Shown one piece after another: positions 13,180 to 19,365 of a DNA stretch of 64,000 nucleotides. Where the stretch lies: NCBI GenBank assembly GCA_023667045.1, contig JAMPAU010000001.1, positions 62,001 through 126,000 on the forward strand, written 5' to 3'. The DNA is from Ruminococcus flavefaciens. Lineage in GTDB: Bacteria > Bacillota > Clostridia > Oscillospirales > Ruminococcaceae. The notes below the pieces were generated by a model. That model worked only from the letters and a program-made list of their open reading frames with translations. It did not search any database and was not told the DNA's origin. Each line of letters begins with the position of its first letter. Position 1 is the stretch's first letter. The position numbers and the translations under genes are program-made.

Positions 13180-13208
13180 AAAAAAAGACGGTTTTCTGCA
13201 AACCGCCT
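13180..13208 (-). terminator. Rho-independent terminator of the xre gene
   Basis: On the minus strand a 9-bp stem (AGGCGGTTT paired with AAACCGTCT, one G-T pair), a 5-base loop and seven T. It separates xre from the operon promoter 2-7 bases further on, so the two are transcribed independently. Confidence 0.75.
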
Positions 13209-13215
13209 GTTAAGA

Positions 13216-13542
13216 TTATTCCGCTGAAAATTTTTTTATTTCTTCCTGTACAATACGTTCCATGTCGCATATTACCTTATATTTTGCACGGTCGGGAGTA
13301 AGCCTGTAAAGCTCAATGAGCTTTTTTTCATCACTGTTAAGGTTGCTCCGGTACTCGCCGAGAAGTATATAATCAATTGAAGTATTCAGATAACCTGCAA
13401 TTTTAATGAGAACATCGCCTTTAGGAAGGTTGCCTTTTTTCCAGTTGCCAGTACAGCCAGTACTTATGCCAAGACTGCTGAGCATATTTGTCACAGATGT
13501 TCCTTTTTCTTTGCAAAGTTCGTGAAGCCGTTCATAAAACAT
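13216..13542 (-). CDS. XRE-family (Cro/CI-type) transcriptional regulator
   Basis: 108 residues. The N-terminal helix-turn-helix (about residues 5-62) reads LHELCKEKGTSVTNMLSSLG then NWKKGNLPKGDVLIKIAGYL and NTSIDYILLGE, a classic Cro/CI layout. The C-terminal 45 residues are helical and charged and may serve dimerisation. AGGAGGG lies 8 bases before the ATG. Its promoter is back-to-back with a promoter reading the other way and the region holds two matched inverted repeats, so autoregulation and control of the divergent micro-ORF transcript are likely. Whether it also controls the ABC operon behind it is open; that promoter has no copy of the inverted repeat that I can see. Confidence 0.88.
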   Translation of the reverse strand: MFYERLHELCKEKGTSVTNMLSSLGISTGCTGNWKKGNLPKGDVLIKIAGYLNTSIDYILLGEYRSNLNSDEKKLIELYRLTPDRAKYKVICDMERIVQEEIKKFSAE

Positions 13543-13578
13543 ACAAAAAACCCTCCTTATTTTGTGGAAAACATAGAA

Positions 13579-13610
13579 AACTTATTAAAATAAGTTTAGT
13601 TGCTTGACAA
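13579..13610 (-). promoter_or_regulatory. xre promoter with inverted-repeat operator 1
   Basis: Minus-strand TTGTCA (13605-13610), 17-base spacer, TAATAA (13582-13587). The inverted repeat AACTTATTAAAATAAGTT (13579-13596) covers the -10 box. The -35 box overlaps by five bases the -35 box of the divergent forward promoter. This arrangement fits autorepression by the XRE protein (inference). Confidence 0.6.
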
Positions 13611-13631
13611 ACTCATAAAAATGAGTATAAT
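13604..13631 (+). promoter_or_regulatory. Forward promoter with inverted-repeat operator 2
   Basis: TTGACA (13604-13609), 16-base spacer, TATAAT (13626-13631). The spacer is almost filled by ACTCATAAAAATGAGT (13611-13626), which matches operator 1 in the form ACTYATWAAAATRAGT. The centres of the two repeats are 31 bp apart, about three helical turns, so two dimers could bind on one DNA face. Confidence 0.7.
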
Positions 13632-13774
13632 ATAATTATAGACAGAAAACAAAAAAATATTACAGCTTAACTATATATTATATCATATTCGGGCGTTTTT
13701 TTCAATAAAATTGTCGATATTTGTATAATTAATGTAAAAGAAATATGTTTTTTCAAAACAGAGGGAGTTATAAA

Positions 13775-13837
13775 ATGATAAAGTTATTATTTTTTGCAAT
13801 GCCCTTACTGGCATTTTATGTGCCTATGTTTAAGTAA
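13775..13837 (+). CDS. Micro-ORF 1, 20-residue hydrophobic peptide
   Basis: Reads MIKLLFFAMPLLAFYVPMFK with GAGGGAG 7-8 bases before the ATG. It would be one membrane-spanning segment with a Lys near each end. It is the first reading frame on the transcript from the operator-controlled promoter at 13604. Possible roles are a small membrane toxin, a signalling peptide or a membrane-protein regulator. No family recognised; the ribosome binding site and promoter context are the only support. Confidence 0.45.
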   Translation: MIKLLFFAMPLLAFYVPMFK

Positions 13838-13889
13838 AATACGCTTTAACGGCGTGTTTATAGAGTTTATATGAAAGGGGGACGTAAAA

Positions 13890-13958
13890 ATGTGGTGGCT
13901 TCTTGCTGTTGGTTGTGCAACCAGTGTAGGTTCAATTATATTATCATGCTGTAAGTAA
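13890..13958 (+). CDS. Micro-ORF 2, 22-residue Cys-containing peptide
   Basis: Reads MWWLLAVGCATSVGSIILSC followed by CK and a stop. AAAGGGGG lies 8 bases before the ATG. Hydrophobic, with two Trp at the start and three Cys. It is 52 bases after micro-ORF 1 on the same transcript and is followed by a strong terminator. An overlapping frame starting at 13871 has no ribosome binding site of its own. Function unknown; it could be a small toxin, a secreted signal or an antimicrobial precursor. Confidence 0.45.
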   Translation: MWWLLAVGCATSVGSIILSCCK

Positions 13959-13982
13959 TAATATAAAAACCTTAATAACAAA

Positions 13983-14024
13983 AAAACGGCTATCATGAAT
14001 TATTCATGACGGCTGTTTTCTTTT
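13983..14024 (+). terminator. Rho-independent terminator of the micro-ORF transcript
   Basis: A 17-bp stem with two G-T pairs and one A-C mismatch, built on TCATGAA-TTA-TTCATGA, with a TTTTCTTTT tail. It closes a transcript of about 380 bases that contains nothing but the two micro-ORFs. Confidence 0.8.
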
Positions 14025-19130: not shown

Positions 19131-19159
19131 TTGACAAATCCATGATTTTGTGGTATTAT
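19131..19159 (+). promoter_or_regulatory. Promoter of the SRP RNA and dnaX
   Basis: TTGACA (19131-19136), 17-base spacer, TATTAT (19154-19159) preceded by TGG, an extended -10. Transcription would start near 19166, just before a 7-bp hairpin (CAGAGCA ... TGCTCTG, 19166-19186). Confidence 0.75.
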
Positions 19160-19197
19160 ATTATACAGAGCATCATGTCTGCTCTGATTCAGGAATA

Positions 19198-19329
19198 AAT
19201 TCCGGAATATAGATGTGTGGGCCCTGTGCAACAAGACCCCGTGAACCATGTCAGGCGGGAGACCGAGCAGCATTAAGCGGATTGTTTTGTGTGCCGCAGC
19301 AAGCCTGCACATCTATGCTCCGGAATTTT
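19198..19329 (+). ncRNA. ffs: Signal recognition particle RNA (small bacterial type)
   Basis: The RNA core of the signal recognition particle, which binds Ffh. The conserved apical part is present: GAACCATGTCAGGCGGGAGA then CCGAGCAGCA, i.e. the GTCAGG/AGCAGC internal-loop signature with a GGAG-type tetraloop. The outer ends pair over about 20 bases (AATTCCGGAATATAGATGTG with CACATCTATGCTCCGGAATT). A TTTTTT follows the outer helix. Position just before dnaX is the Firmicute arrangement (scr in Bacillus). The 5' boundary is uncertain: the transcript should begin near 19166 with an extra hairpin, which may be a processed leader or a remnant of an Alu-type domain. Confidence 0.85.
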
Positions 19330-19365
19330 TTGTAGAAAACCGCAAAACAGAAAGGAATGTACCAG

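What the first reader, a model, noticed from the sequence alone, without database searches (positions are those of the whole stretch)
13216..14024. XRE repressor facing an operator-controlled transcript that encodes only two micro-ORFs
Divergent promoters share overlapping -35 boxes. Each carries one copy of ACTYATWAAAATRAGT with centres 31 bp apart. The forward transcript (about 380 bases) contains two hydrophobic peptides of 20 and 22 residues with good ribosome binding sites and ends at a strong terminator. This is a complete bistable-switch-like cassette of a kind usually seen in phage or peptide-signalling modules, but standing alone. The peptides may be toxins, signals, or effectors of the XRE protein.
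Basis: partly seen in the sequence, partly recalled or inferred. Interest (0 to 1): 0.75.

Follow-up and report, generated by a model that had tools for sequence, protein, structure and literature searches.

The report
XRE switch controlling two micropeptides
A gut Ruminococcus carries a small phage-style repressor whose neighbouring transcript encodes two tiny hydrophobic peptides, at least one of them probably really made; the same switch recurs in related bacteria with other peptide genes behind it, so it looks like a reusable on/off module for small peptides.

Summary
The XRE gene (13216-13542, -), two exact operator copies (13580-13595, 13611-13626; centres 31 bp apart), a consensus forward promoter, two micro-ORFs with ribosome sites and a terminator are present. 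The xre promoter, however, is probably not back-to-back: it faces the forward promoter, -10 to -10 gap 45 bp (13705-13677), and 25 of 26 homologous loci show such a face-to-face extended -10 promoter (the other is cut by a contig end). xre mRNA would then cross the forward promoter and both operators, as in coliphage 186. Micro-ORF1 changes mostly synonymously between the window and four relatives. In 15 close genus loci the pair is present in 5, decayed in 2, not seen in 6, unscorable in 2: xre and its operators outlast the cargo. In another family a homologous switch carries a pair of 19-21 residues without significant sequence similarity, its second ORF under coding constraint (3 of 20,000 shuffles). 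Elsewhere peptide-export genes or secreted proteins follow. Best reading: a stand-alone 186-like repressor switch with an exchangeable slot, here driving two membrane micropeptides. Activity and inducing signal are unknown. New variant of a known kind.

The parts
13216..13542 (-). xre: 108-aa XRE/Cro-CI-type repressor (HTH in about residues 1-65; no sensor or peptidase domain found)
   Evidence: 79-85% identical in 14 other genus genomes
13186..13208 (-). terminator-like hairpin after xre
13551..13558 (-). xre ribosome site AAGGAGGG
   Evidence: read
13580..13595 (.). operator O1, ACTTATTAAAATAAGT, inside the predicted xre leader
13604..13631 (+). forward promoter TTGACA-16-TATAAT
   Evidence: score 11 or more in 26 of 26 loci
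13611..13626 (.). operator O2, ACTCATAAAAATGAGT, in the spacer of the forward promoter
13677..13705 (-). predicted xre promoter, TTGAAA-17-TATAAT with TG before the -10, facing the forward promoter; -10 to -10 gap 45 bp
   Evidence: CAGCTTAACTATATATTAT invariant in 14 of 14 aligned close loci
13775..13837 (+). micro-ORF1 MIKLLFFAMPLLAFYVPMFK; ribosome site GAGGGAG 13761-13767
13890..13958 (+). micro-ORF2 MWWLLAVGCATSVGSIILSCCK; ribosome site AAAGGGGGA 13874-13882
13983..14019 (+). intrinsic terminator of the micro-ORF transcript, T-rich tail to about 14027

Best explanation
A chromosomal switch outside any visible phage. XRE dimers bind O1 and O2, three helical turns apart. At O2, between -35 and -10, they shut the forward promoter. 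xre is transcribed from a promoter that faces the forward promoter, so its RNA polymerase must cross the forward promoter and both operators. XRE should therefore roadblock its own synthesis, while an active forward promoter should interfere with xre, as pR does with pL in coliphage 186. When XRE falls below a threshold, a transcript of about 385 nt makes two short hydrophobic peptides that insert in a membrane, most likely as membrane-active effectors (acting on the cell itself or exported against competitors). What lies behind the promoter differs between species. Shown by sequence: the parts, the conserved geometry, coding constraint on ORF1 and on the second ORF of a pair in another family, variable cargo. 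Inferred: DNA binding, interference, bistability, translation in the cell, membrane insertion, effector role. Unknown: the inducing signal.
For: Face-to-face promoter with score 10-12 in 25 of 26 loci; resampled sequence reaches 10 in about 2% of trials. O1 and O2 30-32 bp apart in 26 of 29 loci, ties resolved towards 31; the 15 loci whose O1 matches 9 or more of 12 positions (2% in resampled sequence) all lie at 30-32. ORF1: pN/pS 0.12-0.23 between the window and 4 relatives; 2 of 5000 column shuffles as conservative. f24 second ORF, whole: 16 base changes, 9 at third positions, 4 residue changes, 3 of 20,000 shuffles. Some homologous switches are followed by bacteriocin-type export genes: TIGR01193 607.3 vs cut-off 523.85, TIGR03794 168.5 vs 156.2; C39 peptidase domains. 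In 186, pR and pL converge, pR exerts 5.6-fold interference and CI repression of pR indirectly activates pL (PMC6593788, passages).
Against: No expression or binding data. The pair is absent or decayed in 8 of 13 scorable close loci although the switch stays, so micropeptides cannot be its only purpose. ORF2 shows little constraint against the window (pN/pS 0.79 and 0.99; only 3 of the 5 pair loci were comparable). Among the four relatives themselves ORF1 pN/pS is 0.27-0.59. The pairs of the two families share no significant sequence similarity, and the forward -35 of L127 is not recognisable (best 9). No dedicated exporter or immunity gene was recognised beside the pair; the neighbouring ABC-2 transporter is also kept where the pair is missing.
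Confidence: 0.55

Rival explanations
1. The switch matters for xre itself or for the forward RNA (non-coding, or read-through into the ABC transporter), and the micro-ORFs are incidental cargo being lost.
For: Promoter and operators persist where no micro-ORF is seen. In L012, L014 and L021 only weak hairpins (-9.5, none, -11.1 kcal/mol) were found before abcA, so read-through is possible there. The forward RNA folds better than shuffles, z -3.47, 1 of 100 as good.
Against: Synonymous bias in ORF1 and in the f24 second ORF; two dissimilar pairs behind homologous switches. The fold score includes the terminator hairpin; no covariation test was run.
Confidence: 0.2
2. Toxin-antitoxin-like module: the peptides harm the producer and XRE silences them at the level of transcription.
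For: Size and hydrophobicity (GRAVY 1.60 and 1.46) resemble type I toxins (recalled); an operator inside the promoter; decay of the pair in relatives would fit a costly gene.
Against: Minus-strand promoter matches over the ORFs reach only 9/12; xre is kept without the pair.
Confidence: 0.2
3. Peptide signalling: one micropeptide is the effector that removes XRE from DNA.
For: Small peptides encoded next to an XRE protein and under its operators.
Against: XRE is 108 aa with no further domain found; homologous repressors with quite different neighbours keep the same operators.
Confidence: 0.07
4. Remnant of a prophage or mobile-element immunity region.
For: The HTH resembles phage repressors (phrog_8, E 1.7e-14); the cassette lies on opposite sides of one neighbour gene in two f24 genomes.
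Against: No relative found in viral contigs by a search that reaches close relatives only; one exact operator-promoter pattern absent there; at most 43% identity in the 20 of 23 phage records listed. abcA lies beside xre in 9 of 9 close loci that reach that far, and the solute-binding gene follows in 12 of 13.
Confidence: 0.08

Closest known systems
Coliphage 186 CI / pR-pL switch
   Same: Convergent promoters; the repressor shuts the opposing promoter (passages of PMC6593788)
   Different: Stand-alone in a chromosome, small repressor of other type, peptide cargo instead of lytic genes; CII and Apl counterparts were not searched for
Small Cro/CI-type repressors (RstR, DicA)
   Same: Two best NCBIfam hits
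   Different: Far below both cut-offs: 33.0 vs 80 and 25.8 vs 101 bits
Leaderless multi-peptide bacteriocins
   Same: Two or more leaderless peptides (passages of PMC6131525)
   Different: Window peptides: 20 and 22 aa, GRAVY 1.60 and 1.46, charge +2 and +1; the five table rows seen give 30-31 aa where shown, GRAVY 0.37-0.69, charge +3 to +4
C39-peptidase / NHLP peptide export systems
   Same: Found behind homologous switches
   Different: Not seen beside the window's micro-ORFs
Type I toxin-antitoxin peptides, e.g. the Streptococcus mutans system of PMC3543317 (listing and start of abstract only)
   Same: Very short peptide from an intergenic transcript
   Different: Control here would be by a protein repressor; no convincing antisense promoter found

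Membership tests
186-type face-to-face repressor switch | promoters of repressor and target converge, repressor sites at the target promoter | tested here: met
   25 of 26 loci, O2 within the promoter spacer; by sequence only
186-type face-to-face repressor switch | measurable transcriptional interference relieved by the repressor | not testable with these tools
   needs reporters
Phage lysogeny module | phage genes in the neighbourhood or close relatives in phages | tested here: not met
   neighbours are transporter and other bacterial genes
RstR repressors (NF041951) | score above the curated cut-off | tested here: not met
   33.0 vs 80 bits
DicA repressors (NF007257) | score above the curated cut-off | tested here: not met
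   25.8 vs 101 bits
Leaderless bacteriocins | cationic peptides of about 30 aa or more with moderate hydrophobicity | tested here: not met
   against the five table rows seen
Leaderless bacteriocins | antibacterial activity | not testable with these tools
   needs synthetic peptides
Type I toxin-antitoxin | antisense RNA antitoxin | tested here: inconclusive
   only 9/12 minus-strand promoter matches over the ORFs
Rgg/SHP-type peptide signalling | regulator with a C-terminal peptide-binding repeat domain (recalled) | tested here: not met
   108-aa protein, HTH-type hits only apart from sub-threshold noise

The most novel reading that the evidence does not exclude
A class of chromosomal, phage-186-like bistable switches in gut clostridia, not found described here, whose exchangeable slot carries peptide effectors, including a new kind of two-component, leaderless, roughly 20-residue membrane micropeptide pair that arose at least twice and is fired in a subpopulation. 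The -10 to -10 gap of the face-to-face promoters (44-47 or 55-58 bp, none between, 25 loci) would reflect a helical-phase constraint.
Probability: 0.3. Interest if true: 0.78.

Novelty: new variant of a known kind. Interest (0 to 1): 0.58.

Why it matters
It would show a phage-type transcriptional switch domesticated as a plug-in regulator for small peptides in gut bacteria, and give a handle (operator plus face-to-face promoter) for finding peptides too short for gene callers. Coding constraint on peptides of 20 residues is hard to demonstrate; here relatives make it testable.

Tried and rejected
Back-to-back xre promoter: candidates score 6-9 in 26 loci, over a shorter stretch than the facing promoter. 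Prophage origin. Known RNA: the one Rfam hit in the window at gathering threshold is SRP RNA at 19146-19347. Known families for the window's peptides: no hit in Pfam, NCBIfam or PHROGs. Homology between the window's pair and the f24 pair: not significant (shuffle p 0.17-0.48). Pattern search for face-to-face promoters: 130 of 396 genomes matched, many sites without relation to xre; the reversed-pattern control showed one match; the match list was cut, so it was not used as evidence. PDB sequence search of XRE: no hit up to E 0.1. Helical phasing of the two promoters is post hoc and the loci are related: a lead only. Outside the close group, of 10 XRE loci under 50% identity 3 have a facing promoter scoring 10 (L128, L002, L005; gaps 40, 42, 43) and 7 do not; L008 gave no alignment there. 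The f24 14-codon test (0 of 20,000) used a stretch chosen because its residues agree; the whole-ORF test replaces it. Papers: the rows listed by searches (parts of long lists for 35, 66, 68, 74, 75) showed no description of this layout; no proof of absence. PMC12565409, PMC3004801, PMC6593788, PMC7905540 and PMC6131525 were seen as passages only. Rows dropped: each genus genome was counted once; L015 and L020 were left out because their contigs end just upstream of xre (L060 stands for G083); L126 repeats L037 and L040 repeats L075; L127, L132 and L133 are not among the 26.

Full report
What is there. The window lies in a genome of 3.64 Mb in 112 contigs; 14 of the 18 related loci in genome contigs are titled Ruminococcus sp.. 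xre (13216-13542, minus strand) encodes a 108-residue Cro/CI-type protein; its best Pfam hit falls just below cut-off (Phage_CI_repr 21.3 vs 22 bits). A terminator-like hairpin follows it. One sits in the spacer of a 12/12 forward promoter. The promoter-operator pattern has no second copy in the genome within two mismatches.

Promoter geometry. I scored 26 distinct homologous loci. All 26 keep the forward promoter (score 11-13 with one point for TG). In 25 a minus-strand promoter with a TG-extended -10 lies downstream of it, facing it, score 10-12; the 26th, L019, is cut by its contig end. Back-to-back candidates score 6-9, searched over a shorter stretch; resampled sequence reaches 10 for a TG-extended promoter in about 2% of trials. 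In close relatives 19 bases over this -10 are invariant in 14 of 14 rows. The -10 to -10 gap is 44-47 bp in 17 loci and 55-58 bp in 8, about one helical turn apart; the loci are related, so this is a lead only. Among 10 XRE loci under 50% identity only 3 have a facing promoter scoring 10, so the geometry belongs to this subfamily rather than to XRE genes at large. The xre message would run through the forward promoter and both operators.

Operators. Across 29 loci the two best palindromes are 30-32 bp apart in 26; the script resolved ties towards 31, and in the other three (L079, L080, L081) its choice of sites is doubtful. Of the 15 loci whose O1 matches at least 9 of 12 positions (2% in resampled sequence), all lie at 30-32 bp. 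In several close relatives O1 keeps mainly its left half.

Micro-ORFs. ORF1 was compared in five species. Window against relatives gives pN/pS 0.12-0.23, relatives among themselves 0.27-0.59; 2 of 5000 column shuffles leave as few variable residues, none of them free of stops. ORF2 is recognisable in L018 and L017 (shuffle p 0.002, and 0 of 2000), with pN/pS 0.99 and 0.79 against the window and 0.30 between the two. In L016 and L022 other short ORFs follow ORF1. Of 15 close genus loci, 5 have the pair, 2 are decayed (L013, ORF1 shortened in frame to 14 residues, and G083/L060), 6 show none (L009 and L011 are visible for only about 300 bases), and 2 are unscorable. A pattern search for ORF1 with 3 mismatches found 4 of 125 genus genomes, the four relatives; the window's own copy was too different to match.

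Neighbourhood. abcA lies beside the slot in 9 of 9 close loci that reach that far, and the solute-binding gene follows xre in 12 of 13; L031 has about 3.8 kb after xre without it. So the slot varies at a mostly stable site.

Distribution. xre homologs: 16 of 125 genus genomes at E 1e-20, 8 of 396 family genomes at 1e-17, 7 of 394 order genomes at 1e-13, all three counts with the own genome; 3 of 22 genomes of genus g247 in family f24 and 1 of 190 of that family, with another query, both with G741. 1 of 13 and 1 of 16 in two further genera, both the starting genome. The distribution is patchy.

Other cargo. Behind homologous switches lie: a peptide with a double-glycine-like motif (by eye; no family hit) and a peptide-export ABC transporter (L037, copy L126; TIGR01193 607.3 bits, cut-off 523.85); a lipoprotein-like ORF, an NHLP-type HlyD (168.5 vs 156.2) and a C39-peptidase ORF that matches only the first part of its export family, below cut-off (L086); two peptides with double-glycine-like motifs and a C39 peptidase domain in an ORF cut by the locus end (L132); secreted or lipoprotein-like proteins (L075, L041, L088, by eye); a Sel1-like protein (L039, by eye); a transposase-like ORF (L087, by eye); others unnamed. 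L023 has one 29-residue hydrophobic ORF.

A second pair. In genus g247, G741 (L127) and G877 (L133) have two short ORFs behind a homologous switch, of 19 and 20-21 residues; one ORF in each genome would start at ATT behind a strong ribosome site. The second ORF, compared whole, has 16 base changes (4, 3 and 9 by codon position) and 4 residue changes; 3 of 20,000 shuffles do as well, 1 without stops. The first ORF is not significant (1661 of 20,000). Similarity to the window's pair is not significant. L127 has no recognisable forward -35. The cassette lies on opposite sides of the same 378-residue gene in the two genomes, so it moved or the neighbourhood was rearranged.

How it may work. In 186, pR and pL converge, pR exerts 5.6-fold interference on pL, and CI repression of pR indirectly activates pL (passages of PMC6593788). 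The same geometry here predicts mutual antagonism; operators inside the xre leader add a roadblock. With no sensor domain found, induction may need an unknown partner or chance fluctuation; XRE-controlled population heterogeneity is reported in Photorhabdus (PMC7905540, passages). The peptides (GRAVY 1.60 and 1.46) should insert in membranes. They are shorter, more hydrophobic and less charged than the five leaderless bacteriocin peptides in the table rows seen of PMC6131525, so I do not file them there.

Loci without micro-ORFs. Of 10 close loci scanned, L001, L010, L013, L016, L018 and L022 have a terminator of -14.6 kcal/mol or better before abcA; the scan found none in L014 and L017, and only -9.5 and -11.1 in L012 and L021. 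Read-through control of the transporter is possible in L012, L014 and L021.

Verdict. A conserved switch with probably translated micropeptides; the regulatory geometry is the better-supported half, the peptides' role the weaker.

Noticed in passing
L006 1252-1327 and 972-1044 (own genome, contig C35): Facing a paralogous XRE gene, a promoter-like site is directly followed by a tRNA-Met (anticodon cat) and then an odd tRNA-like gene called with a four-base anticodon: possibly XRE-controlled tRNAs.
   Followed up: partly
L127 and L133, micro-ORFs: One micro-ORF in each genome appears to start at ATT behind a strong ribosome site.
   Followed up: no
one search matches, e.g. G128:C3:2135840-2135921, G239:C5:237157-237237, G000:C57:60256-60327: A sequence with TATAAT, then a stretch like GTATCAATATGG, then a facing extended -10 recurs in several genera; identity unknown.
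   Followed up: no
L137 and L138: The xre-micro-ORF cassette lies on opposite sides of the same 378-residue gene in two genomes of one genus; no transposase was noticed in the ORF lists.
   Followed up: partly
L070, L071, L072: A near-match to the operator-promoter precedes similar secreted-protein genes (MKAPKRN.../MKASKRK...) with no xre seen in the fetched flank: a wider regulon or chance similarity.
   Followed up: no
window 13178-13150 (-): A 12/12 promoter with TG before the -10 lies just after xre, ahead of the solute-binding protein gene.
   Followed up: no
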